Part shown: positions 2,855 to 53,748 of the stretch, one piece after another | Layout: the number at the start of each line of letters is the position of its first letter | Numbering within the stretch: position 1 is the stretch's first letter | Origin: Thraustochytrium sp. TN22 | Taxonomy: Eukaryota; Sar; Bigyra; Thraustochytrida; Thraustochytriidae | DNA: 64,000 bases | Direction of reading: 5' to 3' | Assembly (NCBI GenBank): GCA_013306675.1 | Contig: JABLUY010000023.1 | Span: 1 to 64,000 of the forward strand | Translations under genes and position numbers: made by a program | Notes under the pieces: model-generated | Databases searched by the model: none | What the model saw: the letters and a program-made list of their open reading frames with translations, nothing else | Told to the model about the DNA's origin: nothing

Positions 2855-4878
2855 AAGGGCAGGGTCGCTCGAGCCTGAGTCTGAGCCGCCCTGCGCGCGT
2901 AAGGATGCCACAAAGGCCGTGCAGTGCCAGTAGGGCCGAGCAGCGCAAGGCTGGCAAAGCAGTTCCGCCCAGGCTGCCAGGCCGCTTCCGGAAGCTGGCG
3001 ACGAGCTCGAGCTCCCCTGTCTGATCGTCACACCCTCATAATCATCATGGCCTGGATGTTGTCAACTGTCGTGCTGCTCAGCGCTTGGGCTGGCTTCCAA
3101 GGCTGCAATGCTGCGGGCTAGGCCAGCCCTGGCCGGGCAAATGCTGCCGAGGCTGGATGGGCTGGTAGGGCAAATGTTGCCGACTCCTTGTTTCAAGAGA
3201 CTTCCCGAGGGAATACCTTCCGGTTAGCTTCACGGCTTGCGGCGGCGGCGGCCGCAGCTGCCTTTTGCATGTTGAGAAGGCCAGGAATGCCGGGCTGGTG
3301 GCCATGGTGGCAGTGAGGGGACCGCTCCAAGGTCAGCCTCGCTCGTCGACGCAAGACACGGGACGCTGACCGTCGACGCCTGCCATTGCCATCCATGCTG
3401 GCCAGCAGCCAGCCAGACTGGTTTGCGCGCACAATAGGTGGTAGCCCCTAAAGAAAGAGAAAGAGAAAGAGAAGGAGAGCTGGGCTGAGCTGGTGAGACC
3501 AGCAGCCAGTGGCAGTTAGTATGCTTCGCGACCAGCGTGGCTGGCTGGCTGTCGCTGGGTGTCGCTGGCTGCTCGGCTGGAAGGTCGCCTGCGGCCGCTG
3601 GCACGCGTCGCTACGCCTCACAGTCAGTGTCAGAGGTGGACGCAGCCGCCTGGGAGTCGGCAAGCAAATGTGGCAGGGCTCAGCTCGTCACAGATATCAC
3701 CGCACCTCTCTCGTCCAGCTGGGTCCCAAGTTCGTGCGTCCCACACCGGCAAGCTGCCAGCTCTGGACTTGGTCGCTCGGCGTTGCTGCCACTGCAGCTT
3801 GTGAGGCGCCACAGTTAGCTTGCAGCCGCGCGCGGTCAGGCTTCCGCGCGCGGCGCGCGCGCGGCGCGCGCGGCGCGCAGCATCGCGCAGCAGCACCCCT
3901 CACCCCCACACGGCACAAGACATCATCGCCGTGCGCAGCATGAGGGCGCTCGCAAGAGCGCAGCCTCGCTCGCCGATGCGGCGGCGGCCAGCCAGGCGGA
4001 CGCCACGCGGCGCGGCGCTTGCGACGCTTGTGGCGCCGCCTGCCGGCCTGAGGGCGCCTGCGGCCGCGGAGCCGGAGAGGGCCTACGCAAGCTGAGCCTT
4101 CAAGGCGCGCGGGCTTGACTGACCGCGGCGACAGAGTGAACTTGAACGCGCTCGCCTGGCCTCCGCTGGCGCCAGCCGCTCTAGGACAGGAGACGGAGGA
4201 GAGGGAGAGAAAGAGCGGGCAATGCAAGCTTGCGCCGGCGGCGGTGGCTGGTGGCTGGGTGGCGCCCGACTGGCGCAAGCCGACCGGACAGCCACGTCGT
4301 TCAAGTTGACGAGGCCTGTCACTGGTTGGTCGCGAACGGCACCCGGGATTGTCCACAGCGAAGCAAGGGAAGAAGCAGGGCAGAAGCAGCTTGCTCGTTG
4401 TGGCGAGGCGGTGGAACAGCAGGGGAAAGCAGCTTGCTCCCCGCACGGGCCCACGCAGCTTTTGGAAACGTGCCTGGCGGTCGCCACAGCGGTAGGCGCG
4501 CAACAAGGGCCGGCGGCGCACTGCGGGACGCCGACCACACTGAGGGGGAAGATGAGGGGCCAGCCCCGCACAGGCCCGCACGCAGGCCTGTGGCGCGACG
4601 CGGAGCGCGGCGAAAAGCGGCGCTCAACTGGACGAGCGGGCAGTCAGTCCTTCAAAAGCCCGCGCGGGTCGAGCGCTGGCGCTAGCGCTAGCGCGCGGGC
4701 CCGGGCGCGGGCGCGGCACGCGCGCGAGCGGGCGCGCGAGCGGGTGCGGCGCGGCCCGGCACTGCGCGGCCAGCCAGCCAGCTGGGCGGGCGCCGCCGTG
4801 GGCGACTGGTTGACAAGGCCGGCCGGCAGGGGGGGGGGAAAGGGGGGCCCACGGGCACGCGGTGCTCATAACAGAAGG
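2855..4878. other. Gene-poor interval between hydratase and histidine kinase
   Basis: Two kilobases with no supportable gene. Open frames on both strands are compositionally biased (Ala/Arg/Ser-rich) and match no family. A purine run of AAAG-type units lies near 3450-3478. A GC-rich stretch around 4680-4860 directly precedes the kinase start. It probably holds the 3' UTR of the hydratase and the promoter/5' UTR of the kinase. Confidence 0.6.
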
Positions 4879-5476
4879 ATGGCGTCGGCGCTGCCGCCGA
4901 ATGATGGCATGCTGGCGTACGCGAACGAGATGTCGGAGCTGGTGATTGCGCTCTGCTACTTTATCATCCCGTCGATGATGTTCTTGTGGATGAGGGACAT
5001 CAAGGTGGCGTCGGTTTTTTTGGAGATTAGGGTGTGGTTCATGCTTTTCATCGTGTGCTGCGGCCTCACGCACCTGCTCGGCTTCCTCGGGTGGTGGTGG
5101 AAGGCGCCCGCCCTAGTGACGCTGTGCAAGCTGGCCACCGCCGTGGTCTCGGTTGGCACGGTGATCGTCCTGGTGCGCCACATGAAGGCACTTGACGCAC
5201 TCATGCGCCGCGCCGCGGAGCTGGAGCGCAGCGTGCAGTCGTCGCTGGACCAGCTCGCGTCGCTACGCAGCCGCAACCAGGAGCTGGCGCGCCTCAAGGA
5301 GGAGGCCGTCAACATCGCCAAGCTGCGCCAGGAATTCATCTCGACCGTCTCGCACGAGGTGCGCACGCCGCTGCAGAGCATCATCGGCTTCGGCGAGATC
5401 CTCGAGCAGAGCGAGCTGGACCCTTCGCAGCGCCAGATGCTGCGCACGATGCTGGAGAGCTCGCGCATGCTCTGCA

Positions 5477-5508
<32 letters not shown>

Positions 5509-6912
5509 TACCAAAAGGAGAACTTCGTGTTGGAAGACGAGCCCTTTGCCCTTCTGGACGCCGTCACCTCGGCGCTGCGCATCTCGTCGAGCCGCGCGGC
5601 CGCCAAGAGCCTCGATCTGCGCTACCGCGTGTGCACGCCTTTGCCGGCCGTTGTGCGCGGCGACATGACGCGCGTCGTCCAGGTGCTCTCAAATCTCGTC
5701 TCGAACGGCGTCAAGTTCACGCAGACCGGCTCCGTGTCGGTGCTCGTCAGCAGCGTGCCCACGGCCGAGGATCGTGAGCGCTGGCTAGCCGCCTTCCGCG
5801 CGCGCCCTCACACCTTCTCGCCACTCGATGACGATGAGGCCAACGCGCGCGCCATTCTGGCCGGCCTCGGTACATCGGAGTCCGAGAGCGAGCAGCCTCA
5901 CGGCGAGCAGCCGCAGCAGCCGAGCAACGGCGCAGACCGCATTATCTCGGAGCGCACGGCTCTCCTTGGCGCCAACCGCGACGTGGCGCCTGCTATCATT
6001 CGCCAGGACAGTGACGCCCAGGGCGCTGGCGCGCCCTGGGGCATCATGCTCCAGGTTGTCGATACGGGCGGCGGCGTCGCGCCGGCCTCCTTTTCGCGCA
6101 TCTTCCGCCGCTTCATGCAGAGTGATACCTCTACGACCCGAGTCTTTGGCGGCACCGGCCTCGGGCTTTCCATCGTGCAGCAGCTTGCCATCCGCATGGG
6201 CGGCTCGGTGCACCTGGAGAGCCGCCAGGGCCACGGCGCCACATTCACGGTGTTCTTGCGCTTCACCGTGGTCCGCGACGCGCCGCCCATCGAGCCCAGC
6301 TCGGGCTTCGTTGTGCTGCCGCCGCCCTCGCTGCTCCCGCTCGAGCCCGCCTCACCGGTCCCGGCCAACGAGGCGGCCTCGGCCCTGGCAGCAGCGCGCG
6401 CCATCCCGACCAGCATTCCGCCCACGCCCGGCGGCACCAACAGCCCTGCCATCACGCACCGCCTTCGCGTCTTGCTGGTCGACGACAACGAGATCAACCG
6501 TGCCGTCACCAAGCCCATGCTGCTCCGCTCTGGCGCAACCTCCGTCGACCTCGCCAGCAATGGCCAGCAGGCCTACGAGAAGGTGCTCGCTGCCTCGCAC
6601 TCCAGCAAGGAGCCTTATCACGTGATTCTCATGGACCTGCACATGCCTGTGCTGGACGGCTTCGGTGCCACACAGAAGATTCGGCTCAACCTGCGCCAGA
6701 TCGACAACACGCCGATCCTCGCCTTTACTGCCGCCGCGTTCACGGCCGAGGAATCCGCGAATCTGCGCGCCAAGGGCTTCAACGGGATGCTTTTTAAGCC
6801 CTGTACCCTGGCGCGCATCAAGCAGACACTCTGCATCGTCGACGCCTACCTGTGCGGCAAGACCGTGCTCGAGGACCTCTTTTTGCAGACTGAGTCGCTT
6901 TACCAGCGATGA
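4879..6912 (+). CDS. Ethylene-receptor-type hybrid histidine kinase
   Basis: A membrane sensor kinase of 677 residues. Three hydrophobic segments (about 18-36, 50-72 and 78-100) match the ethylene-binding domain of plant ETR1. IALCYFIIP parallels ETR1 IAIAYFSIP, and IVCCGLTHLLGF parallels IVLCGATHLINLW, so the copper-ligand pair is kept as C61 and H65. A Glu (E20) sits where ETR1 has Asp25. No GAF domain follows. A short coiled coil leads straight to the HisKA box (STVSHEVRTPL, phospho-His H159), then HATPase boxes (NLVSNGVKF; VVDTGGGVAP; GGTGLGLSIV) and a receiver domain from about 526 (LLVDDNEINR, phospho-Asp D586 in MDLHMPVLDGF, FTAAAF, LFKP). The kinase looks active and passes phosphate internally before any HPt partner. 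Ligand identity is inferred, not shown. Confidence 0.9.
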
Positions 6913-12315: not shown

Positions 12316-12401
12316 TCTCGCCTGCCGGAGTCGAACCAGCGACCAAGAGAAGTTCATACAAACGCTACAATCTCTCGCTCTACCAACTGAGCTAAAGCGA
12401 G
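12316..12401 (-). tRNA. tRNA-Tyr (GTA) with 13-nt intron, copy a
   Basis: The minus strand folds as a cloverleaf. The acceptor stem pairs CTCGCTT with AGGCGAG, giving the C1-G72 pair that marks eukaryotic tRNA-Tyr, with discriminator A. The D arm is GCTC/GAGC, the anticodon stem AGAGA/TCTCT and the T arm GCTGG/CCGGC around TTCGACT. The anticodon GTA is followed at position 37/38 by a 13-nt intron, as expected for eukaryotic tRNA-Tyr. A T7 run lies just 3' (complement of 12306-12312). Only about 20 bp of 5' flank is shared with copy b; beyond that is SCO1-derived sequence, so it lacks the TATA-like element of the other copies. Confidence 0.95.
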
Positions 12402-12834: not shown

Positions 12835-12920
12835 TCTCGCCTGCCGGAGTCGAACCAGCGACCAAGAGAAGTTCATACAAACGCTACAATCTCTCGCTCT
12901 ACCAACTGAGCTAAAGCGAG
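12835..12920 (-). tRNA. tRNA-Tyr (GTA) with 13-nt intron, copy b
   Basis: Identical in body and intron to copy a, including C1-G72, anticodon GTA and discriminator A. A T8 run (complement of 12824-12831) provides a Pol III terminator and a TATA-like box lies 56 bp upstream. This is probably the ancestral copy of the duplicated pair, because its upstream element is intact. Confidence 0.95.
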
Positions 12921-19568: not shown

Positions 19569-19858
19569 GAGCGTCTTGCCGACGCGGAGCGTCTTGCCGA
19601 CGCGGAGCGTCTTGAGGTGGAGCGTCTTGACGTAGAGCGTCTTGACGTGGAGCGTCTTGACGTGGAGCGTCTTGACGTGGAGCGTCTTGACGTGGAGCGT
19701 CTTGACGTGGAGCGTCTTGACGTGGAGCGTCTTGACGTGGAGCGTCTTGACGTGGAGCGTCTTGACGTGGAGCGTCTTGACGTGGAGCGTCTTGACGTGG
19801 AGCGTCTTGACGTGGAGCGTCTTGACGTGGAGCGTCTTGACGTGGAGCGTCTTGACGC
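19569..19858. repeat. 15-bp coding-period minisatellite (GAGCGTCTTGACGTG)
   Basis: Two 18-bp units (GAGCGTCTTGCCGACGCG) pass into about seventeen nearly perfect 15-bp units. Because the period is a multiple of three, several frames on both strands stay open through it; this is an artefact rather than a gene. It starts 53 bp after the MYND stop codon. Each unit holds TGACGTGG, an ACGT-core sequence of the bZIP-site type. Confidence 0.95.
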
Positions 19859-20206: not shown

Positions 20207-20294
20207 CTCGCTTTAGCTCAGTTGGTAGAGCGAGAGATTGTAGCGTTTCTCTATGAGTTTCTCTTGGTCGCTGGTTCGACTCCGGCAGGCGAGA
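20207..20294 (+). tRNA. tRNA-Tyr (GTA) with 15-nt intron, copy c
   Basis: The mature sequence is identical to the two copies near 12.3-12.9 kb (C1-G72, GTA anticodon, discriminator A). The intron is 15 nt rather than 13 and differs in sequence after its first five bases. A T10 run follows directly. Confidence 0.95.
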
Positions 20295-20483: not shown

Positions 20484-23150
20484 TCAGCTGGTGGTGAGCA
20501 TGGGGTCGAACGGCAAGGTGCAGAGGTAGGGGCCGAGCAAAGAGCAGGCGTCGGTGAGACGCTTGATCTGCGAGCGGTAAGCGCGGATCTGCTTGGACTG
20601 GACGTGAAAGCGTACTGCTTTGTGATCGTCGCGGTGCTGACTTTGAGCGGCGTGGTTGTGCGCGTGGTTGAAGCGGCGCAGCTTGGAGTTGGCCTTGGCA
20701 CCAGGCTCGTCCTCCTCCTCTTCGGCCTTCTTGGCGTCATGCTCGCGCACGTCGTCGCGCTCGTGACCAAGAGGGCTGTCAGGGCTTCCCTGGCTCTCCG
20801 AGGAGGGCGACTCGACACGAGGGCTTGCTGCCTGCGACTGGATGCTGCAGCGGCGGTGGAAGGGGAGCCCGAAGCGCTCCGAGACCTCGAGCGCACCCTG
20901 CAACTCAACGATGGTCTGCTTGTAGCGCTCCAGGTGGTTGGGGAAGAAGTGGTACACGGCTCTGGTCTTGCAAATCTGGAGCATGGCGCGCGACTGCCAC
21001 GGCGTATCGCCGCAGGTCAGGTACGCCACCGACGTGTTGGTCATGAGCGCGGTCACGAGCGCGTCCGCGGCCTCCTCGGCAAGGTCCTCGTCCTGCGAGC
21101 TCTCGATGCTGCGTCGGGTCAGTCGGCCGGCCAATTTGTCGCAGGAAGTATGAACACAGGGGCGAAACGTACTCGAGATCGGTGAGACCCTTGTTGACCG
21201 TGATGGCGTCCGCAAGCGCCATGGCGGCGTCGTCGTCCAGGGCACAGCCATTGAGACTGTGGGTGCAGGCAATGCGCGCCTTTTTTGTCAGTTTTCTCCT
21301 GGGTCCAGCACTGAAATGCCGCAGGCGGTGCAGCTGCGCGTGCATGGCAGGCCAAGCCAAGCCAAGCCAAGCCAAGCCAAGCCAGAAACGTACTCGAGGC
21401 GCTTGAGCGTGCTGTTGGCGTGCAGGGCGCCGGCCAGCGCCTGGACGCCGCTGGAGTTGATGCCCGTGCCGGAGAGCCTGTGTGCAAAAGGTCGTCAGCA
21501 GTCAGTCGTTGCCTCCCTACTTGTGGGCGCCGCCCGCGTACGCGCGAGAAGCGAGAAGCGAGGACACGAGGCATGAACGTACAGAAGCTCGAGGAGCGTC
21601 GTGTTGGTCTGGAGCACGGAGGCAAAGGCCACGGCGCCCTCGTCGCCGAGGGGGTTGTCAAAGAGGTCGAGGTGCGTGAGCGTGGAGTTGGCGCGGAGTG
21701 CGAGCGCGAGTGCGACGGCGCCGCGCGCGTCAATCTCCGCGGAGCTGAGGTCAAGCGTGGTGAGCGTATCGTTGGTGCGCAGCGCATCGGCGAGGACGGT
21801 GACGCCCTCGCTGCCGAGCTCGTTATCGGCGAGCTCGAGCGATTGCACCGTCTTGTTGTGGCGCAGCGCCTCGGCGAGCACACGCATATCGGAGGAGTCG
21901 AGCAGGTTGTTGCGCAGCGAGAGGTTGCGCAGCGAAGTGGTGGTCCGAAGCGCCTGCGCGAGCGCCTGTGCGCCCTGCGCGGCGAGCGTGACGGCCCAGA
22001 GGCGAAGACCGCGGAGCGTGGTGTTTTTCTCGAGCGCCTTGGCGAGCGCCTCGACGGAGTCAGCGCCAACCTCGTTGAGCTCAAAGGCGCAGTCGAGCAG
22101 GGCGTGGTTCTCCTGGAAGGCGGCGGCAAGCGCGCAGGCGCCGCGGTCGCCGATGGCGTTGGAGCGATAGCAAAAGTCGGAAAGCTTGTCGTTGACCTTG
22201 AGCGCCTCGGCGAGCGCCTCCATGCCGGCCGGGCCAATGGCGTTGTTGACGAGGTTGAACCAGGTCAGCGTGCGATTCTCGTGGAGTGCGGCGGCGAGCG
22301 CCTCCGCGCCGGCGTCGTCAATCTCATTCCCGTAGAGATCGAGCTTCCAGAGACGGGTGCCGGGCGCCGCCAGCATCTCCTCGGCGATGGCCGCGGCGCC
22401 CTCGGACTGGATGCCGTTGGCCGTCAAGTCCAGCACGCGCAGAAAGCGGAGGTTGCCGTGCGCCAGCGCGCGCGCGCCCTCTGGGCCCACGCTGTTGTCG
22501 GCCAGGTCCAGGTCGCGCAGGTGGACGGCGGCGGCCAGCGCGCGGGCGCCCTCGGGACCGATGCTGTTGTTGGCGAGGCCGAGGCGCTGCAGCGTCGTGT
22601 TGCCGCCCGCGGCGGCGCCCTCGGCGGCAGGACGCAGCGCCTCGGCCAGCGCCTCGGTGCCCTCGCACTTGAGCTTGTTGTCGGCCAGCTCAAGCTGCCG
22701 CAGCGTCGAGTTGCGCGCGAGCGCGTCCGCCAGCAGGCGCACGTCGGCCAGCCGCAAACGCGTGGCGGCCAGGTTGAGCCGCGTCAGCGGCAAGCTGGGG
22801 TGAGGGGCCAAGAAGGCGCCGTCGTTGCCGGTCAGGTCGAGCTCGCGCAGCGTTCGGTTGGACATGAGCGCCTCAAGCAGCGCCTGCGCGCCGCCCGCGC
22901 CGATGGCGTTGCGCCCGAGATCCAAGCGCTCCAGGGTAGCGTTGCGCTCCAGGGCGGTGGCCAGGGCCACTGCGCCGGCAAGCCGCACGCCCTTGTCGCG
23001 CAGCCCCAGTTCCACGAGCGTCCGGTTCGTGGCCAGCTGCTCCGCGAAGGCCTCCACGCTAACGCCGAGCGTCTGCTCCCAGACCTCGAGAGAGGTCACC
23101 GGAGCGCGCATCCCATACTCCACCACGTCGCTCATGGAGTGGAAGAGCAT
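20484..23150 (-). CDS. Ribonuclease-inhibitor-type LRR protein, four exons
   Basis: Exons 21583..23150, 21394..21477, 21173..21256 and 20484..21108 join into 786 residues. Introns are all phase 2 with GTACGT donors and CAG acceptors. The joins restore the LRR consensus (…TLLELLLSGTGINSSG and STLKRLDLNGCALDDD), and the total length is divisible by three. The protein is built from about 19-20 LRRs of 28 residues (for example TLERLDLGRNAIGAGGAQAL), the NLRC3/RI class. Exons 2 and 3 encode exactly one repeat each (84 nt), while exon 1 holds about 17 fused repeats. The tail (HFFPNHLERYKQTIVELQGA, then Ser/Glu-rich) is unknown. No NACHT, signal peptide or membrane span is seen. It is likely cytosolic; partner unknown. 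Confidence 0.85.
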
Positions 23151-35752: not shown

Positions 35753-38119
35753 ATGCGGCGCAGCGGCGGGCGCGCGGCGGCGCAAGCGGCCGGCGCGGCG
35801 GCGGGCCTGCGCCTGGCCCTCACGGCACTGGCCTGCGCGACGACGGCGTCCGCGGCCGCCTCATCGACGTGCTACGCTGTGGGCGGCGCCACGGAGGTCA
35901 CGACGCCGTGCGAGCTGCCCTTCTTCGTGCAGGGACAGGTCGTGAGCGGTGGCACCAAGGTGGTCGTGGGCAAGGCGTTCACGGCCTGCGCGCCGGTCGC
36001 TGAGCCGTACCTACCGTACGAGCTCTCCATCGCGGAGGATGGTTCTGTGAATCACACGCTGGCGAGGGCACCGGATCGTAACGGGACCAACATGGCCTAC
36101 TGGTGCCCGGTGGCATCCTTTTACTCCACCTTTGACGCCAGTTTCCGCCCGGCGTGGGGCTACTGCTGGTGCGGCGGCGATGACTTCGAGTGGCCGACAC
36201 CTGCGCCGACGAAGGCCCCAACGACACGCACCCCGACGAGGATGCCGACTACGTCCTCGCCTACCGACGCGCCTTCGCAGGATCCTACGCTGGCGCCCAC
36301 CGGGGTCCCGACAGCGCCGACGACGCAGGGCCCCACCACGCCGTCGCCATCGAGAGAACCGACACAAGCGCCAACCACAGCTAGCCCAACACACGCACCG
36401 ACCAGGGCGCCCACAGAAAGTCCAACGCCGGCACCCTCGCGGGCTCCCACCGACGCACCGTCAAGTTCTCCTACGGACGCGCCGACTCCGATTCCGTGCA
36501 AGATCACCGACGGGCCGGCCGTGGCTGACGGCAAGGAGCGGAATTGCACCTTCCCCTTCCAATGGAATGACGCAGAACACACCTCGTGCATTCCCTTCTC
36601 GAACTCTTTTGACGATCCTCGGCCAGAAGGCTCAGACGAGTACGTTGGCTCTGGCCAAGCATGGTGCAGCACCAGAAGGGACTACAAGGGCTCAGGGAGG
36701 AACTGGGGCCTTTGCGAGTGCTATACGCCCGCACCAACCAGTGAGCCAACGGCTGGGCCCCTCACCATAGCCCCGACGCAAGACGACCCAACGCAACTTC
36801 CTTCCACGGCGCCCGTCCAGGGTCCAAACACCGCACCAAGTTCGAGCGCCGCACCAACGTCGACGCTTGAACCTAGCGCTGCGCCGACCTCATCTCAGGG
36901 TCCGAGCACCGAGCCGCCGAGCACCGCGCCATCGAGCACGGTGCCATCGAGCACGTTGCCACCAACAACTGCACCATCAGGCACTTGGCCACCAACTACT
37001 ACTGCGCCAGCAAGCACTTTGCCACCAACTACTACTGCGCCGTCAGGCACCGTGCCGACCGGTACCGGATCACCGAGCGGTGCAGGCGCAACCTTGGCAC
37101 CATCTTCATCGTCGCAGGCCCCAAGCGCGTCCGCGCCCATCCCGCAGCCCTCTGCGGTGCCAACAAGCGCTCCAGATTGTGCCGCGAACGGGATACGCGA
37201 CGGGCAGGAGACGGACGTGGACTGTGGCGGGCCGGCGTGCGAAGCTTGTGGCCTCGGGCTGGCCTGCGAAGTGGACACGGACTGCGTCACAGGCGCTTTC
37301 TGCCTCGGAACCGGCTCGTGCGAGCTCGTTGCGAGTTCCACCCTTGCGCTGCACACGGGTGAGGACGCACTCCGTCACATCGACCCGCAGGTGCTCCAGG
37401 AACACCTGGCGCAGACCTTGGTGGAACAGGAGGCTTTGTTCGCGCTGGCGGATTTCGTCGTCGAGGGCTGGGACGCCGCGCAGACCGCGGAGCAGCTATG
37501 CATCACAGATGGCGGCTGGGCGGCAACTGGGACGGCTTGCGTGCTGCCATTCACGTACCAAGGAAGAACCTACGAGGAGTGCATCGACGTGAGCGAGGCG
37601 AGACCGTACTGGGGGAATGCCTCCGCCACGCCTCCCGGCAGCCCGCCAGCGTTTTACAAGGTGTACTGGTGCGCAACGACGCCGGACTACGCCAGCGAGG
37701 ACGAGGTCGTTCGTGAGAGTTGGGGCTTTTGCGACTGCGGCGACACATGGCCCACCGCCTTTCCGACACAGCGACCAACCACGGCCGCGCCCACCGCTTC
37801 GGCCACGGGCGCTCCGTCGTCCTGCGCCACATCGGCTCGCGCCGAGGAAGCCGCCAACGCCTTGCGCAGCGCACTCCTCGGTGCCCTTGACTCTACCGAC
37901 CTGTGGCTCAACATGCGTGGGCCCACGCACGGCATCGTGGACTCCGACCCGGATGCCGACGTCACGCATGGCACTGCCATGGCGCTCTGGCTCGAGCTGG
38001 CCGAAGCACAGGCCTTCGAATCGCGAGCGGCGGCGCGCGACGCAATTATCACGGCCATGCGCACGGCGCTCTCCGTGCCCTATTACAATCAGACGCTGCA
38101 TGCGATCTGTGACGGATGA
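35753..38119 (+). CDS. Secreted Pro/Thr-rich protein with fibronectin-II-like modules
   Basis: 788 residues with an N-terminal signal peptide (LRLALTALACATTASA, cleavage near 35). Three Cys-rich modules of the fibronectin type II/kringle-like kind each end in an aromatic-C-x-C motif: about 40-140 (WGYCWCGG), 249-323 (NCTFPFQWNDAEHTSC ... WGLCEC) and 582-660 (ACVLPFTYQGRTYEEC ... WGFCDC). Pro/Thr/Ser linkers (APTDAPSSSPTDAPT) separate them and are likely O-glycosylated. A compact Cys module (NGIRDGQETDVDCGGPACEA, about 476-523) of a kind common in protist surface proteins lies between modules two and three. A cell-wall or extracellular, possibly carbohydrate-binding role is inferred. Confidence 0.8.
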   Translation: MRRSGGRAAAQAAGAAAGLRLALTALACATTASAAASSTCYAVGGATEVTTPCELPFFVQGQVVSGGTKVVVGKAFTACAPVAEPYLPYELSIAEDGSVNHTLARAPDRNGTNMAYWCPVASFYSTFDASFRPAWGYCWCGGDDFEWPTPAPTKAPTTRTPTRMPTTSSPTDAPSQDPTLAPTGVPTAPTTQGPTTPSPSREPTQAPTTASPTHAPTRAPTESPTPAPSRAPTDAPSSSPTDAPTPIPCKITDGPAVADGKERNCTFPFQWNDAEHTSCIPFSNSFDDPRPEGSDEYVGSGQAWCSTRRDYKGSGRNWGLCECYTPAPTSEPTAGPLTIAPTQDDPTQLPSTAPVQGPNTAPSSSAAPTSTLEPSAAPTSSQGPSTEPPSTAPSSTVPSSTLPPTTAPSGTWPPTTTAPASTLPPTTTAPSGTVPTGTGSPSGAGATLAPSSSSQAPSASAPIPQPSAVPTSAPDCAANGIRDGQETDVDCGGPACEACGLGLACEVDTDCVTGAFCLGTGSCELVASSTLALHTGEDALRHIDPQVLQEHLAQTLVEQEALFALADFVVEGWDAAQTAEQLCITDGGWAATGTACVLPFTYQGRTYEECIDVSEARPYWGNASATPPGSPPAFYKVYWCATTPDYASEDEVVRESWGFCDCGDTWPTAFPTQRPTTAAPTASATGAPSSCATSARAEEAANALRSALLGALDSTDLWLNMRGPTHGIVDSDPDADVTHGTAMALWLELAEAQAFESRAAARDAIITAMRTALSVPYYNQTLHAICDG

Positions 38120-39591: not shown

Positions 39592-42500
39592 TCAGTTCCA
39601 CAGCCGCACCGTACGGGCCCAGCGATCAAAGTCCCGGACGCCGGCTTCCCCGCCGAGGACAGCGCGCACGAGGCGCACGGGCGCCACGGCGTCCAGCGCG
39701 GCGTACTGGACCTGGGCCTCCTCGAGCGGGCGAGCGGACCACTCGCTGCACTGGTAAGACTTGTCGAGGCGGACACGGAGCAGGAAGCGGCACCACATGT
39801 CGAGACTGAGAGAGAGCGGGTCGCCCCAGTGGTCGCGAGAGCGCTCGGCAAAGAAAGCCGAGGTGACCGTGAGGCTGTCGACCACGCGCATGGCCAGGTC
39901 TGCGGACTCCTCGCGCGGAAGGCCCGCTTGCAGCATGCCGCGCAGGCGCCAAAAGTCCTCGTGCACGCTGAAGCCGGTCATGAGCACCTTGCTCGCATCG
40001 ACGAGGTCCTGCAAGAGGTCGAGGGCCGCGCGGCCCAGCGGCGACGTCGGGTCCGCCAGCAGCGTCTCAAGGTCCAGCAGGAAGACATCGCGGTCCTCGA
40101 TGGCCACCTGCCAGAGCGCCAGGTACGAGGGCACGTCAGCGCGCTCCTCGTCAAGCGAGGACGGCTGCTCCAGTGCCGCGCGATCGCCGCGCTTAAATTG
40201 CAGCGTGCCCCATTCCGCGTCGACGCCGATGATAATGGGCCGACCGTCCGCGCGCCGCAGCGCATCGCTAAAGATGCGGCGTGCCTCCGCGAGCGAGTCC
40301 TCCGCGTCCACGAAGAGCACGCGCACGTCCTCGTCCCAGGACACCGTCGAAGCCATGAGGGGAACTGCGTCGCCATCGCGGTCCACCTCGCGCAGGGTCG
40401 CGTGGTCGAGCGGCGGGAAGCTGGCGTCTACCACAGCGTGTGCGCGTCGCAGCCGCTGCGCGCGCTTGTAGTTGCGCCCCTCCGCCAGCAACGCGCGGTA
40501 CATGGCACAGACCAGAGTTTCAGGATTGCCTGCCGTGGCGAGGAGCGTCTCGGCCGCATCGTAATGGCGCAGCTCCACCAGGTACATGAGCATGCGCTCC
40601 AGCTCTGGCTCCGTATAAACGCCCGGCGTGGCCTTGAGCAGCCCGGTCGCCGCGGCCGCCTCAACGGCTGAGAGCGCGCCGCCGCCGCCGCTGCCGCTGC
40701 CGCCGCTGCCGCCGCCAGTGACACTGCCAGTGCCGGTGCGATTCAAGAGACGTTTCCGTACATACGCCTCCACCAGGGCACGCGCCTCGCCGTCAAGGTC
40801 AAGCGTCATCTCATCGCCGCCCCCAGGCGAGATGCCGCGGCCGCTAAAGAGGAGAAGGTGCAGAAGCTCCATGTCCTCGTTTGCCACGCAGTGGCGCACA
40901 AAGTCCGCAACGGCGCTCGGGGAGGCCTTCTCCTCGGGGCCTGAGGCGAGCGCAGAGGCGCGCATCAGCAGGCGGCACATGGTCCGCAGCTCACGCGTCT
41001 CCAGGTGGAAATCGGACGACTGAGACACGCCGACGGCGGCGCGCAAGGGAAAATCGGCGCTGGCCGGTGAGCCGCGCAGGTGTTCTGCCACAGCCTGCAC
41101 CACGTGGCGCGCGTGGTCATTCGACCTAAGCTGCGCCACCTCGCCGTTGTCGTGCACGAGGAAGAGCGCGCGTACCAGGGCGCCTAGGTCGCCTTGCACA
41201 GCGGCACCCAGATCCTGTGCCTCGCAGTGCTCGCAGCCTGGACGACCGGCAGCAGCAGCGCCGCCACCGCCACAAGGTGCGGCCGGCACAGCCGTGTCTG
41301 CCGAAGCCGCACGTGCACCAGCGAGAGCGCTCTCGTCGCCATTGTGCTCTTCAACGCCGTCAATGAAGCGGCAGATGATCTGGTCGCTCTGGTGCACCTC
41401 CAGCACGCCTGGCTCATTCGGCACGCCCTGTCCGGACCTCTCCGACTCGAGGAGCGGGGCGGCGGTCCACTGTCGCCCTAGGATGAACCCACGCGTCACT
41501 TCGACCCAGATATCCTCGGCAGCGTCGTGCACCAGCAGCGCCATCATGAGCGGCGACGGCCCGCTGTTGCCGGCCTGGCGCGCGCGGCGTTGCTCACGCC
41601 GCGCGCGCGGCGTGCGCGCGGCGTCTTTGTCCGCGCCGACGCCCGGGCCCTGCGCCCCGGACTCCTCCGCCTCCTCATCGTCCTCCTCCTCCTCCTCCTG
41701 TGCCTGCGCCTGCTCCTGCTCCTCCTCTCCCTCATGTTTTCCTCCGCCACCAGCTGCCGCTCCACCTCCTCGTTCTTCCTCGTCTAGCCCCTCTTCTACC
41801 CACACATCATTATAGTGCGTGCGAACGATTCCGACCATGTCCTCGCGCGAGAGCATGGGCAAGCTGTAGGCATGGAGGTTGTTCGCGGGCAGGCGCAGCG
41901 GCGCCAGCCAGTAGAGCTTGGGCAAAATCGTCCAGCGCTCCTCGCGGCCCGGCTGCGCGAGCCGGCGTGCCGCTTGCCCAAAGTCCAAGGCGTACCAACG
42001 CTTTTCGTGGTGCGGCAGCAGGTGCTGGCGGTGCCCCACAATGGTCGAGGCGTCGAGCTCCGCCCGCGACGGCGACTCACTCGCGACGTGCGGGCTGCCG
42101 CCGGCCGCCAGGTAGTCCTCCAAGGCGTAAAACACATAGCCCTGTATCTGCGCAAGCGAGAGTACCTTGGCATCGGTCCCGTAAGCGCGGCGCAAGGCCG
42201 TACCCGCGGCGTGTGCGACACCGATCTTTCGCTCGGCGAAGCGGAACCGGGTCAACAGCGTCTCGGACAGGTGCGGGCCGACGAGGTAGTCCTCGATCCA
42301 GCAGAAGAACTTGATAGAGCACTCCATGTGCATGAGGCGGCCGCGGTAGTCCCAGACGTACTTGAGCGAGCCCAGCACGGTGCCGCGCTCCTGCACGACA
42401 ACGGAGGGCTGCAGTGCATGGATCCCGAGCGCTTCGCAGTGGCGCAGCCAGTACTCGATGAGGAGCCCAAAGTAGGCGCCCAGGACGAGGCGGCCGCTGC

Positions 42501-42876
42501 GATTCCGCCGGCGCTCGAGGAAGTCGTTGAGGCGCGCCTGCTCGGCCGGATCGCGCTCGACGCGCTGCAGCCAGGGCTGGCTCGCCTCGCGCGCGTGCGC
42601 GAGCCAGGCCTGGACCTCGGTGACCGCGTCGCGGTCCTTGGCGGCGGCCTCGGCGGCGGCCTCGGCGGCGGCCTGACGCAGGCCGATGCGCACGGGCTCG
42701 TTCTCACGCTGCACCCAGAGCGCGTACGGCAGGCTGCGCACGGCGAAGGCGAGGTCCTGCGCCTGGCGGTCCGCCATCGGGAGCTGGCGCGCCACGGGCC
42801 CGTGCGCGGCCTTGCTGACCAGGTGGTCAAAGTCGCCGCGCCGCACGGCGTCCAGCCCGTGGATGCCGTGCATCAC
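39592..42876 (-). CDS. DUF1853 fused to a DEDDy 3'-5' exonuclease
   Basis: 1094 residues with two recognisable ends. The N-terminal third resembles bacterial DUF1853: GRLVLGAYFGLLIEYWLRHC, LMHMECSIKFFCWIEDYLVG, IQGYVFYALEDYL and WTILPKLYWLAPLRL. The C-terminal 250 residues are a WRN/Mut-7 type exonuclease: D-x-E in IIIGVDAEWGTLQ (about 882), ASKVLMTGFSVHEDFWRL, and ARPLEEAQVQYAALDAVAPV with the YxxxD Tyr/Asp. An acidic linker (Glu/Asp-rich, about 370-410) and helical repeat-like sequence (ERMLMYLVELRHYDAAETLL) join them. It probably processes nucleic acid; substrate unknown. The start MMHGIHGLDAVRRGDFDHLV is clean, with a divergent gene 405 bp upstream. Confidence 0.8.
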   Translation of the reverse strand: MMHGIHGLDAVRRGDFDHLVSKAAHGPVARQLPMADRQAQDLAFAVRSLPYALWVQRENEPVRIGLRQAAAEAAAEAAAKDRDAVTEVQAWLAHAREASQPWLQRVERDPAEQARLNDFLERRRNRSGRLVLGAYFGLLIEYWLRHCEALGIHALQPSVVVQERGTVLGSLKYVWDYRGRLMHMECSIKFFCWIEDYLVGPHLSETLLTRFRFAERKIGVAHAAGTALRRAYGTDAKVLSLAQIQGYVFYALEDYLAAGGSPHVASESPSRAELDASTIVGHRQHLLPHHEKRWYALDFGQAARRLAQPGREERWTILPKLYWLAPLRLPANNLHAYSLPMLSREDMVGIVRTHYNDVWVEEGLDEEERGGGAAAGGGGKHEGEEEQEQAQAQEEEEEDDEEAEESGAQGPGVGADKDAARTPRARREQRRARQAGNSGPSPLMMALLVHDAAEDIWVEVTRGFILGRQWTAAPLLESERSGQGVPNEPGVLEVHQSDQIICRFIDGVEEHNGDESALAGARAASADTAVPAAPCGGGGAAAAGRPGCEHCEAQDLGAAVQGDLGALVRALFLVHDNGEVAQLRSNDHARHVVQAVAEHLRGSPASADFPLRAAVGVSQSSDFHLETRELRTMCRLLMRASALASGPEEKASPSAVADFVRHCVANEDMELLHLLLFSGRGISPGGGDEMTLDLDGEARALVEAYVRKRLLNRTGTGSVTGGGSGGSGSGGGGALSAVEAAAATGLLKATPGVYTEPELERMLMYLVELRHYDAAETLLATAGNPETLVCAMYRALLAEGRNYKRAQRLRRAHAVVDASFPPLDHATLREVDRDGDAVPLMASTVSWDEDVRVLFVDAEDSLAEARRIFSDALRRADGRPIIIGVDAEWGTLQFKRGDRAALEQPSSLDEERADVPSYLALWQVAIEDRDVFLLDLETLLADPTSPLGRAALDLLQDLVDASKVLMTGFSVHEDFWRLRGMLQAGLPREESADLAMRVVDSLTVTSAFFAERSRDHWGDPLSLSLDMWCRFLLRVRLDKSYQCSEWSARPLEEAQVQYAALDAVAPVRLVRAVLGGEAGVRDFDRWARTVRLWN

Positions 42877-48908: not shown

Positions 48909-51900
48909 TCACGTACGCGGCGCAGACACTGCGCGAGCGCAGAGCTCGTCGACTAGAGCGTGCAGCTCGTGCTCCACGGCAAAGCGCTTGTCGCCGTTGT
49001 GGTCACGTGGCCTCCACATGAGAGCCTCTTGATCAAGGAGCCGCTCAAGGTGGCTCGCGAGCTTTGCATGGTAGGTGATCTGCAGGTCATGCTGGCCATC
49101 GCTCGCGGGGGTGGTGGCCTGGAGGTCGCTCTGCAGCTTGCGAAGTGCCGTCACCTCTTCACCATCAAACCTCCAGTCGGTCGCATGCGCCACAGCCAAG
49201 AGACGGAGACCTCGGTCCCCATCGCTCTCAGCGTGCGACTGCGGCAGCGCTTCCTCGAGGGCATCGTTCAGAGCAGCCACGACATCGTCAACGCAACGCG
49301 GCTCCAGAACGACGATGACGACCGTGTCCTCATCAAGCGGCCCGGAACGCGAGGGGAGCTGCTTGCGGAGCTGAGGGACGGTGGTGGAGTCCTTGCCGCC
49401 GATGAGAAGGATTGCTGGGGTGGACTCGCGTTGCGTGGGCTGCGCGAGGGCCCGAACCGTGGTGAAGCGGGGAGTCTTCGACTTGGGCGCCGTGCCAGCC
49501 TTGTCAGCGAGCGCCTGGAGCATGGCGTTCTCCTCGTACTCGCGTCTGCGGTAGGGAATTTTGATGCACTTCTTGAGCGCCTTTTGGGCGGCCTGGAAGA
49601 TGTCCGTGTAGCCCTTCGCCCCAGTGACCTTGAAGTCCTCGGCATTCGGTCTCGCCATGAGCATTTGCGTCTTGGCCTGCTGTCGAAGGTGCCTGGCCTC
49701 CTGCCGAAGGCCCGCAGCCTGCGACCGCAGTTGCTGTGCCTCGTCAGCGAGACTCTCTTGCTCATGGAGGTCAAGAGCATCCTTGCCATCGGCGTCGCAC
49801 ATTCGTGCGTTCTTCTCCAGCTCGGAAGCTTCTTGCTCGAGCCCGGCAGGGTCTTGGAAGTGCCCGTCCTGGCTTTGATGAACCCCACTCTCGAAAGTCC
49901 AGGGCTCATCCTCGCCTCGCGTCCACGGATAGAAGCGCCCGTCCTCCTCCACGATAAAGAAGATGCGCTCCGCCAGGCGGTCCCTGTCGCCGCCACGGCC
50001 CTCGAAATGCTTCACTGCAACGTACAGCTCCGCGAGGCAGTAGGGCCGGAAGAGTACGTCGGCCGTCAGCACCATAATGAAACAGTGCGAGTCCCGGACG
50101 CCTTGCATCATCGTCTTGAGCGTGATTTCCTTGGCGCGCATGTCGATCCAGGAGTGCATTTGGTTGCGCGCCAGGCCGGAGTCCAGGTCTTTGACAATGC
50201 CGGCAGCCTCCTTCTGGTAGTGCGACAAGAAGAAGTGGTACGTGAAGCTGAGGTCACCGTGCTGCTCCATGAACCTGGCCAGAGACGGCGAGGCAGCCGT
50301 AGAGGCAGGCGGTGTGGCCAGAGAAGCTTCGAGCTGCGAAGCGGGCGGCACGAGGCGAGCACCGAGGGACCACCGCAGGAGGGAGCGCCGCACGGCCGTC
50401 AGAGATGACTCGTCAGGGCCTGGCGGGGCCTCGAGCTCGAGCTCGAGCTCGCGCCCGGTCGCGTCTGGAGGCCCCGCGTTCTCCTCGTCGAAGAAGGGGT
50501 GCGCCAGCACATCGTCCAGATGGATGCGCTTGTCGGGCTCGCCGCGAAGGCAGCGGCGGGCGAGGTCCTGCGCAGCGGCGATCTCCGCTGGCGAGCCGTT
50601 CAGGTTGTGCGCGATACGTTCAGTGCGCTCCACGTCGAGGTCGAGCCAGTTCATCAGCTCTGCCTCGTCGCGGCTGTGCACGAGGTTGTCATCCGCCTCA
50701 TCCACCATGAAGAGCTTGGTGCCGGACAGCATCTGGTAGAGCACCACGCCAAAGCTCCAGACGTCCAGCGCCGGGGATGCCCTGAGAGGGGGCGCATTGG
50801 CGGATGCCTCGGTCCGAAAAATCGTACGAGCTAGCTCGGGAGCCACGTAGCCGGAGCTGAACTTGTTGCTCAGAGGTTCGCCAACCTTGACGGAAGCGTC
50901 CAGGTCAATGAGCTGCCAGTCCTCGTGCTGGTTCACGAGGTTGGTCTCGGCACCTGCCGAGTCGCCAGCGACGTGCCCAACGGCTTCCGACGTGCGCGGC
51001 GTGGCCGTGGCGATGTCGGTGCCCTCTGGGAGGAGCCAGCCCTTGCGTAGGCTGGGGGCGCCATGGCCTTGGTCCTCCAGAATGGAGTGCGCGGTCTCCG
51101 ACATGCGCATCACGTTGCGAGGCTTGATGTCGCCATGAATCTGCTTGCGCTTATGAAGGTCGAGGAGCGCCTCCCCGATGGCCTTGGCGATCATGCGGAT
51201 CTTGATGAGGTCGCGTCCGGCGAAGCGCTCTGTATTGATCGCTTCGAAGAGCGACCGCGAGCCGCGCTTCATGACGAGGCAACGCTGCCTCTCCTGGTCC
51301 CTGCGCTCCTCGGCATCCTCCGGCCACCACAGACTCACGCAGCCCTGGGGTTGCGCAGCGCGAGCCGTCTGCTCTCGCCTGTACTGGCCTTGGTCGCGCA
51401 TCAGCTTGAGAGCGACCTGGCGGTCCTCGTTCAAAACGTCGATGGCAAAGTAGACCGCGCAGGACTGAGAGATATGCACCGGCGGGCCGGGCTCGAGGGT
51501 GTAGCGGCCAAGGAAAGTCCCGTAGGCTCTGGCCCACGCCTGAATGTCCGTCCGGGACAACATGAGCGACCGCACAGAGCGACCGCCGGGATCCCCTGCG
51601 CGCATGAGCTCGAGGCCTTCGTCGAGCGAGAGGAAGCTGAAGATCTTCTTGCAGAAGCTCGTGGGCAGCGCGAGCGCCCCTTCGACTCGGCAGGACAGCA
51701 ACGCGTGCATCAAGGGCAGCGAGTCGGGCCACGGCGACTCGCGCCAGTGGCTCTGATTGACAATGGCGAGACCGTCGTACCGCCACAGGAGCTCGACGAA
51801 CGCAGCGAAGACGTCCGCGTTATCGCGCGCCAGGGTGCAGGCAGCTGACGTCCAAAAGTCCCCCTGGCTGCCGCACAGCATGTAGCCCCGGATCCGGCTC

Positions 51901-53748
51901 AGGCGGCCTGCAAGATTTTCTTCGGCCCACAGATCTCCGTAGTCGAGGCCCTCCGGCATGCTCGGGAGGCCGCTGAGTAGAGAGCGGCTGCCCCTGTCAG
52001 ACATCGCATCCTCGAGGCCGAATTGGGGAATCCAACTTACGCCAGCGACTCCAGCACATGGTTCGACTGGAGCGTGAGTACGAGGACATGATTTCCGCTC
52101 GGGCCCACCTGGTTCTTCTCGATGCTGTCACACTCGTGAGTTTTGCCTGCATTGCATTGGGATGACACGCGGGCGCGAAGATGGGACTCACTCCAGCGAC
52201 CTCAGCGCGCACTTGCCGCTCTCCAGGGCTCGCGCAAGCGACGCCGCACCTGCCGGGCCAATCTCGTTCTCGAAGAGACTGTGCGTGTCGCGCCCGGAAG
52301 GTTCTTGTAAGCCTATGCCGTGTGTGTCTCGCATACATGTGCGCATGCCAGGAGGTCGCGCGCTTCTCGACGACTCACCTCAACGTCGTCAGTGGGCAGT
52401 GACCGCTCTCCAAGGACTGCGCCAGCGCCTCAGTGCCCAGTGGGCCAACGCCGTTCCAGCGGAGGCTGATGGGTGTCGGCACGGATTCTTTGTGAGCCTT
52501 CGTCTCGTCTTGCGAGAGCGCATGAGCGGACCTGACTCACTTGAGCGTCTCGAGCGTACACCGGTCGCTCCCCAGGGCGCGCGCCAGCGACACAGCGCCT
52601 GCATCGCCGACCTTGGCGTCGCGAAGACTGTGTTGCTCCGAGGCGATTTGTCTGTGAGACTCCTTCCTTGTCTCCCATGGAGTGGGTGGAGTGCCTCCTG
52701 GCACGCTCCGACTCGGACAGCGCCGAGTAAACTTGCATCGAGAACTCACTTGAGCCACGTCAGCGCGCACTCGCCGGACTCCAAGGCTTGTGCGAGAGCT
52801 TCAGCGCCCTCCGGGCCGACGTCGGCCCACCGGAGGCTGTTGCAAAAAAACACAAGGTCATCGTGAGTCTCCAGCGTTGGCTCGCTGCAAGTTGTGAGCG
52901 ACGCAGATGCCCGCGCACCAGAACTCACTTCAGCGACGTCAGCGAACACTCGCCACTTCCAAGGGCTCGCGCGAGCGAGACCGTGCCTGGATCGCCGATC
53001 TTGTTGTCGCGGAGACTGTGTTGTTGTTTCAGCGGTGCGCCGTCCGTGAGCCACCCTGCCACCCTGCGCACGGAATCCTGTCGTTTGGGCCGCGCTGTAC
53101 CACGGCGCTGATCAACAGCCCGGTGGATCTGCCCAGCAAACTCACTTCAGCGAGGTCAGCACGCTCTGCCCGCTCTCGAGGGCTCGTGCAAGTGACTCGG
53201 CACCCTTTGAGCCGATCTCGTTGTTTTCGAGACTGTTGCATGTCTGGGGTCAGGCTGGCTCGCACACCGCGACCTGCCTCAGAAACCTACTTGAGCTCGA
53301 GAAGAGAGTAGCCGCACTTCTCCAGTACCTGGGCCAGCGCCTCGGCTCCCGTGTCACCAATGAACTTTCGCGTGAGGCTGCAGGTCGCCGTCCTCCAGAG
53401 TCAGCACGCACCGACCGCGCCGGCCCCTTTTTCGTCCTTTTCTCAAACGTACTCGACCTTCTCCGCGCCCGCTTTGATGTCCTTGATCGCCTGCTTGACG
53501 GCGCGCAGCACGGCCTCCTCGTCCTCGCCCTGCTCGTCTTCGGTGCCGGCCGCGTCCCAGTCCACTTCCTCCACCTCTTCCTCGTGCGGGTCTTCAGCGC
53601 CGATGGCGTCGTCCGCGCCGTGCGTCGTTTCGCGCTGCTCGCCCTCGCTGCGAGGCTGGCTGCTCTCGCGCGCGCCGCTCTGCAGCGGCGCCTGCGTGCG
53701 GCTGGCGCGCCGCCATCTCCCGTGCCCGTGCTTGACCCAGGGCCACAT
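48909..53748 (-). CDS. LRR - protein kinase - TIR receptor-like protein, ten exons
   Basis: Exons 53453..53748, 53291..53377, 53146..53232, 52929..53015, 52750..52836, 52541..52627, 52379..52465, 52192..52278, 52041..52124 and 48909..51993 give 4074 nt, 1357 residues. All introns are phase 2; donors are GTACGT, GTAGGT, GTGAGT or GTAAGT; acceptors are CAG. An acidic start (98 residues) precedes eight exon-encoded LRRs (for example LRDNKIGDPGTVSLARALGS). The last exon holds a kinase (VALK Lys at 526; HGDIKPRN, Asp 618; LIDLD for DFG; GYVAPE) and a TIR domain at about 912-1016 (FFLSHYQKEA; CLAEL keeps Glu 985, the NADase position). The C-terminal 340 residues are unknown. An alternative is two genes: a kinase-TIR start at 52004 and an LRR stop at 52037. 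The 47-nt GTAAGT...CAG intron in frame argues for one. Confidence 0.75.

What the first reader, a model, noticed from the sequence alone, without database searches (positions are those of the whole stretch)
48909..53748. LRR-kinase-TIR gene hidden by one-repeat-per-exon structure
Seen: eight consecutive 84-87 nt phase-2 exons each encode one 28-29 residue LRR and are invisible as open frames. They splice in frame, through a 47-nt GTAAGT...CAG intron, into a 3.1-kb exon that encodes a kinase with HGDIKPRN and a TIR domain retaining the CLAEL glutamate. Known: TIR domains of immune receptors can be NADases, and LRR-kinase and TIR-LRR receptors are innate immune modules in plants and animals. Inference: this is a protist immune or self/non-self sensor that combines LRR sensing, phosphorylation and possibly NAD cleavage, an architecture I do not know from characterised systems.
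Basis: partly seen in the sequence, partly recalled or inferred. Interest (0 to 1): 0.92.

Follow-up and report, generated by a model that had tools for sequence, protein, structure and literature searches.

The report
Split LRR-kinase-TIR gene of a protist
A single-celled eukaryote's DNA holds a convincing split gene for a protein that joins a repeat-built sensor, a protein kinase and a TIR signalling domain; it resembles receptors proposed in choanoflagellates and is probably an immune-type sensor, but nothing here shows that it is expressed or what it does.

Summary
On the minus strand eight exons (seven of 87 nt, one of 84, all phase 2) each encode one RI-type LRR and can be joined in frame to a 3.1-kb exon with a protein kinase and a TIR domain (Pfam: LRR_6 1.4e-32, Pkinase 9.5e-21, TIR_2 2.3e-7). 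Introns 1-8 all carry a CTNAC branch-like motif with its A 12-31 nt before the 3' end. A 68-nt intron ending at 51973 fits better and is also in frame, so the fusion stands, seven residues shorter: about 1350 aa, candidate TIR glutamate at 978 instead of 985. No transmembrane-like segment was seen, so I read it as a cytosolic protein. The architecture is not wholly unknown: choanoflagellate 'Kinase TLRs' (LRR-TM-kinase-TIR) and 'Kinase TIRs' have been described (PMC6040629, passages), and one-LRR-per-exon genes are known in brown-algal ROCOs. What differs here: RI-type LRRs, no TM, and repeat-bounded introns in a window that also holds a single-exon LRR gene. Expression, function, NADase activity and species are unproven. 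New variant of a known kind.

The parts
53453..53748 (-). exon 1: acidic N-terminus (MWPWVKHG...AEKV); no signal peptide recognised by eye, no predictor run
   Evidence: open frame that joins in phase 2 to LRR exon 1; positive codon score, 42.5, at 53449-53709; start codon choice is inferred
53291..53377 (-). LRR exon 1 (87 nt, phase 2)
53146..53232 (-). LRR exon 2 (87 nt, phase 2)
52929..53015 (-). LRR exon 3 (87 nt, phase 2)
52750..52836 (-). LRR exon 4 (87 nt, phase 2)
52541..52627 (-). LRR exon 5 (87 nt, phase 2)
52379..52465 (-). LRR exon 6 (87 nt, phase 2)
52192..52278 (-). LRR exon 7 (87 nt, phase 2)
52041..52124 (-). LRR exon 8 (84 nt, phase 2), the most divergent repeat by eye
51973..52040 (-). 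intron 9, revised to 68 nt (GTAAGT ... CTGAC ...
48909..51972 (-). last exon: linker, kinase, TIR, long helix, C-terminal region, stop
   Evidence: open frame; second-highest codon score in the window, in a scoring that used this ORF among its four training ORFs
50490..51512 (-). protein kinase region (5' limit set by eye); HGDIKPRN at 51137-51114; VALK, DLD in place of DFG, APE; no GxGxxG loop seen
   Evidence: Pkinase E 9.5e-21, two stretches; PDB matches, best DYRK3 E 2.4e-9, then CLK kinases
50007..50234 (-). TIR domain, part matched by the profile; candidate catalytic Glu codon GAG at 50030-50028
   Evidence: TIR_2 E 2.3e-7, 31.7 bits against cut-off 28; 8.9e-9 for the isolated stretch, profile positions 1-79 of 122
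49668..49850 (-). long helix after the TIR match, coiled coil by inspection (no coiled-coil predictor run)
   Evidence: only confident part of a poor single-sequence model: pLDDT 94-96 over model residues 151-190

Best explanation
A nuclear gene of an unidentified GC-rich protist encodes one soluble protein of about 1350 aa: acidic N-terminus, eight RI-type LRRs, linker, protein kinase, TIR domain, long helix, C-terminal region. I think it is an intracellular sensor. The LRR arc binds a ligand or a partner; binding, with the long helix, brings copies together; the kinase then phosphorylates itself and partners while clustered TIR domains recruit other TIRs or cleave NAD. Shown: gene structure in frame, domains by profile. 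Inferred: single transcript, cytosolic place, every functional step. Because each LRR exon is symmetric 2-2, a multiple of three long and begins with a pyrimidine, exons could be skipped, copied or swapped without breaking the frame, so the repeat array could change easily.
For: Exon lengths and phases. Coding-type divergence between repeats. CTNAC motif with its A 12-31 nt from the end in 8 of 8 introns, about 8% chance each by simulation (A 11-36 nt from the end), with the motif chosen after looking. Last intron in frame with any of four AGs, at 47, 53, 68 and 80 nt. LRR_6 1.4e-32; Pkinase and TIR_2 above cut-off. Highest Kyte-Doolittle mean over 19 residues is 1.59, so no TM helix is likely. 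Choanoflagellate proteins with the order LRR, TM, Pkinase, TIR were proposed to couple sensing to a kinase directly.
Against: No RNA evidence. No relative was confirmed in IMG/VR, GTDB genomes, plasmids or phages; these are collections where a eukaryotic relative is not expected, and the first two start from six short peptides per query. The kinase lacks a recognisable glycine-rich loop and has DLD for DFG, so activity is not sure. The TIR match covers only two thirds of the profile, and PDB sequence matches of the TIR are weak (best E 0.09). The AlphaFold model is useless for fold recognition (mean pLDDT 43.6). A window-wide count of donor-branch-acceptor patterns is barely above chance (35 against a mean of 24.7, range 12-34, in 20 simulated sequences).
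Confidence: 0.6

Rival explanations
1. Two genes: an LRR-only protein ending at the TAA just after LRR exon 8, and a kinase-TIR protein starting at the ATG at 52004.
For: An in-frame TAA (52039-52037) and an in-frame ATG (52004) do exist there. Kinase-TIR proteins are known in choanoflagellates.
Against: Only 32 nt separate stop and start, little room for a transcript end and a promoter. A GTAAGT donor sits at the same repeat boundary and phase as the other LRR donors, and the AG at 51973 with a well-placed CTGAC keeps the frame.
Confidence: 0.1
2. One gene with regulated splicing of intron 9: retention gives an LRR-only protein, and an internal start gives kinase-TIR, beside the full-length form.
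For: Intron 9 holds both an in-frame stop and an in-frame ATG. Alternative splicing of an LRR exon alters NLRP3 activity (PMC6642158 passages).
Against: No transcripts to test it. Stops in short introns are common (general knowledge).
Confidence: 0.15
3. A signalling or developmental scaffold kinase unrelated to immunity, with the TIR acting only as a self-association domain.
For: RI-type LRRs also occur in non-immune proteins (recalled). The TIR glutamate does not by itself predict enzymatic activity (PMC7075850 passages).
Against: The only paper I found that pairs kinase with LRR and TIR treats the proteins as receptor-type.
Confidence: 0.25

Closest known systems
Choanoflagellate 'Kinase TLRs' (Richter et al. 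2018, PMC6040629; passages read)
   Same: Order LRR, Pkinase, TIR in one protein
   Different: They have a transmembrane helix between LRR and kinase; here none is seen, and the LRRs match LRR_6 (RI type). Sequence relatedness could not be tested.
Choanoflagellate 'Kinase TIRs' (same paper)
   Same: Kinase followed by TIR, no transmembrane helix
   Different: Defined there by kinase plus TIR without a transmembrane helix; the passages do not say whether any carries LRRs. This gene has an N-terminal LRR array.
Brown-algal LRR-ROCO genes (PMC11378527; passages)
   Same: One LRR per exon, phase 2, proposed exon shuffling and alternative splicing
   Different: Their exons are 72 bp and their LRRs of another type; a ROC-COR GTPase stands where this protein has kinase and TIR
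Human NLR genes with modular LRR exons (PMC6642158; passages)
   Same: RI-type LRRs with frame-keeping exons that follow the repeats
   Different: Their exons hold one or more repeats (171 bp for an NLRP3 exon). NLRs have a NACHT domain; none is found here.
Plant TIR-NB-LRR receptors (PMC7075850; passages)
   Same: TIR plus LRR, soluble
   Different: No NB-ARC found here; TIR at the other end; added kinase

Membership tests
Choanoflagellate Kinase TLR | LRR, then Pkinase, then TIR in one protein | tested here: met
   on in-silico splicing; needs cDNA
Choanoflagellate Kinase TLR | transmembrane helix between LRR and kinase | tested here: not met
Choanoflagellate Kinase TLR | N-terminal signal peptide (stated in the paper for animal and choanoflagellate TLRs) | tested here: inconclusive
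   N-terminus MWPWVKHGHGRWRR is not signal-like by eye; no predictor was run and the start is uncertain
Choanoflagellate Kinase TLR | common descent (sequence relatedness) | not testable with these tools
   no eukaryotic collection was at hand
TIR domain family | match to a TIR profile above curated cut-off | tested here: met
   TIR_2 31.7 bits against 28; only profile positions 1-79 of 122
TIR NADases | catalytic glutamate in helix C | tested here: inconclusive
   Glu of CLAEL aligns with the Q of WCKYQM in TIRAP (E 0.59); that NADases carry Glu there is recalled; activity untested
Protein kinases | match above cut-off and catalytic residues (VAxK Lys, HxD Asp, DFG Asp) | tested here: met
   Pkinase 74.8 bits against 31.7; VALK, HGDIKPRN, DLD present; glycine loop not seen
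NLR / NB-LRR receptors | NACHT or NB-ARC domain | tested here: not met
   no such Pfam match up to E 1 in the last exon or the N-terminal 527 residues

The most novel reading that the evidence does not exclude
A single-celled, possibly algal eukaryote builds soluble LRR-kinase-TIR receptors whose sensor arc is diversified by skipping, copying or shuffling interchangeable one-repeat exons, a cytosolic counterpart of choanoflagellate Kinase TLRs that arose independently.
Probability: 0.2. Interest if true: 0.8.

Novelty: new variant of a known kind. Interest (0 to 1): 0.5.

Why it matters
It shows that a gene of this kind can be missed by open-frame annotation, and it adds a soluble form with RI-type LRRs to the kinase-with-TIR proteins that their describers reported as unique to choanoflagellates in their data set. 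If the organism is not a choanoflagellate, which could not be settled here, the combination arose more than once or is older than thought. The interchangeable exons make repeat diversification directly testable by RNA-seq.

Tried and rejected
Relatives: no match confirmed in IMG/VR for the last exon, the TIR or the kinase (21, 2 and 3 stretches matched a peptide pattern, none confirmed), in GTDB genomes for the TIR or the kinase (33 and 6, none confirmed), or in plasmids and phages for the TIR. No eukaryotic genome collection is offered, so paralogues outside the window and the species could not be sought. Within the window no second kinase-TIR copy appeared.

Structure: AlphaFold on the TIR plus C-terminal part without an alignment gave mean pLDDT 43.6; I ran no fold search on it. 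I did not submit the spliced LRR part, because the tool states that it takes only sequences read directly from the window. The second structure job was not used.

Duplication history: exons suggested a two-exon repeat (L3 like L5, 75%; L4 like L6, 69%), but the introns do not bear it out: of 36 intron pairs (with the 47-nt intron 9) I6-I7 ranked first (z 5.7), the next at 3.1, I4-I6 at 2.3, and I3-I5 was not among the eight printed. I make no claim on the order of duplications.

Defence-system profiles: PADLOC gave 27 families (25 shown), whose best stretches lie in the kinase region, best mad6 3.9e-19. NCBIfam gave six, five in the kinase and one weak match to the long helix (E 0.44), all far below cut-off. 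I read these as general kinase similarity.

Chance: the CTNAC motif was picked after reading the introns, so the 8 of 8 count overstates its weight.

Full report
What was checked. The stated region was read on the minus strand and exons were joined in a script. Every internal junction is phase 2 and all nine introns start GT and end AG, with lengths 75, 58, 130, 92, 122, 75, 100, 67 and 47 nt. Differences between repeat exons L2-L7 fall most often at codon position 3 and least at position 2 (198, 152 and 115 for positions 3, 1 and 2, my sums over the 15 pairs, which are not independent; the six pairs with L1 give 120, 72 and 72; L8 was not compared). This is a coding pattern, not a chance reading.

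Domains. The frame of the last exon (read from the ATG at 52004) gives Pkinase (9.5e-21) and TIR_2 (2.3e-7), both above Pfam's cut-offs. The joined N-terminal 527 residues give LRR_6 (1.4e-32; six stretches pass E 1 on their own). The kinase matches DYRK3 (2.4e-9) and then CLK kinases best among PDB sequences. It keeps VALK, HGDIKPRN and APE, but has DLD for DFG and no clear glycine loop. The TIR match covers profile positions 1-79 of 122 and contains the CLAEL motif. PDB matches of the TIR are weak; alignments to TIRAP (E about 0.6) set the glutamate opposite the Q of WCKYQM; that NAD-cleaving TIRs have Glu at this place is recalled. [quoted passage not shown] The highest 19-residue hydropathy mean is 1.59, so no transmembrane helix is likely.

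The last intron. Introns 1-8 each hold CTNAC with its A 12 to 31 nt before the 3' end (8 of 8; about 8% expected per intron in a composition simulation). AGs giving 47, 53, 68 and 80 nt are all in frame. The 68-nt choice has a 24-nt spacing, a pyrimidine first base as in the eight LRR exons, and a pyrimidine-rich stretch before it. I therefore place the last exon at 51972-48909, the protein at 1350 aa and the candidate glutamate at 978 (by subtraction of seven residues). The motif was chosen after seeing the introns, and a window-wide count of donor-branch-acceptor patterns was 35 against a mean of 24.7 (range 12-34 in 20 simulations), so this is support, not proof. The fusion itself is in frame with any of the four AGs.

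Surroundings. The window is nuclear DNA of a eukaryote, 59-74% GC in 2-kb blocks, with genes such as actin, SCO1, a cullin-binding protein, a SNARE-domain protein, a sulfotransferase and a hybrid histidine kinase (28 open frames of this window besides the gene itself were scanned, not the whole window). Some of these have whole or nearly whole Pfam domains in one open frame, for example SCO1-SenC 1-134 of 134 and Cullin_binding 1-116 of 118. Another LRR gene, at 21543-23150 on the minus strand, has seven LRR_6 stretches that pass E 0.01 in one 536-residue frame. So one repeat per exon is not the rule for LRR genes here. Whether introns lie elsewhere in those genes was not examined. The species was not identified.

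Relation to known systems. Richter et al. 2018 (PMC6040629, passages read) describe choanoflagellate 'Kinase TLRs' (LRR, transmembrane, Pkinase, TIR) and 'Kinase TIRs' (Pkinase, TIR, no transmembrane), reported as unique to choanoflagellates in their data. The present protein has the order of the first and the solubility of the second; the passages do not say whether some Kinase TIRs carry LRRs. A search for those two names with 'choanoflagellate' returned only that paper. Other searches for such combinations (the longer lists were capped at 15 of 22, 35 and 21 papers) showed no description of a soluble LRR-kinase-TIR protein that I recognised from titles and abstract openings; most of those papers were not opened. 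Two results bear on novelty: the TIR survey speaks in its discussion of one plant TIR group as belonging to protein kinases, although it elsewhere calls the partner a P-loop NTPase (PMC7075850), and TIR and LRR domain proteins, without a stated fusion to a kinase, are mentioned for Emiliania huxleyi (PMC4236053, passages). LRR exons that follow the repeats and keep the frame are reported for human NLRs, with one or more repeats per exon (PMC6642158, passages), and one LRR per 72-bp phase-2 exon for brown-algal ROCOs (PMC11378527, passages).

How it may work. All functional steps are inferred. The RI-type LRR arc would bind a ligand or partner; assembly, perhaps through the long helix after the TIR (the only confident part of a poor model), would bring kinases and TIRs together, giving phosphorylation and TIR-TIR recruitment or NAD cleavage. 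All eight LRR exons are symmetric and begin with C or T, and five of them (L1-L5) end in AA, which then gives Asn whichever LRR exon follows; exon loss, gain or skipping would leave the frame, and largely the repeat pattern, intact. Whether this happens is unknown.

Verdict. A real and probably single gene with a rare domain combination, preceded in print by choanoflagellate proteins of the same order. Interesting as a soluble variant with modular repeat exons; its immune role is a hypothesis.

Noticed in passing
window 21543-23150, minus strand: A second RI-type LRR gene with at least seven repeats in one open frame; a single-exon contrast to the gene studied.
   Followed up: partly
window 12316-12401 (-), 12835-12920 (-), 20207-20294 (+): Three tRNA genes, which ARAGORN gives with a four-base 'gtag' anticodon and no amino acid; perhaps tRNA-Tyr (GTA) with a short intron (only the first was read).
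   Followed up: no
window 4222-6912, plus strand: Hybrid histidine kinase with an ethylene-receptor-like N-terminal domain (ETR1_N), HisKA, HATPase and receiver in one frame.
   Followed up: no
window 39592-42876, minus strand: One frame holding DUF1853 (1.9e-14) and a 3'-5' exonuclease domain (7.1e-10).
   Followed up: no
window 35753-38119, plus strand: Fibronectin type II match (2.5e-13, best stretch profile 1-21 of 42) in a protist gene, with a PT-repeat match below its cut-off.
   Followed up: no
window 19581-19857: 15-bp tandem repeat, 18.3 copies, 96% matches, unit length a multiple of three.
   Followed up: no
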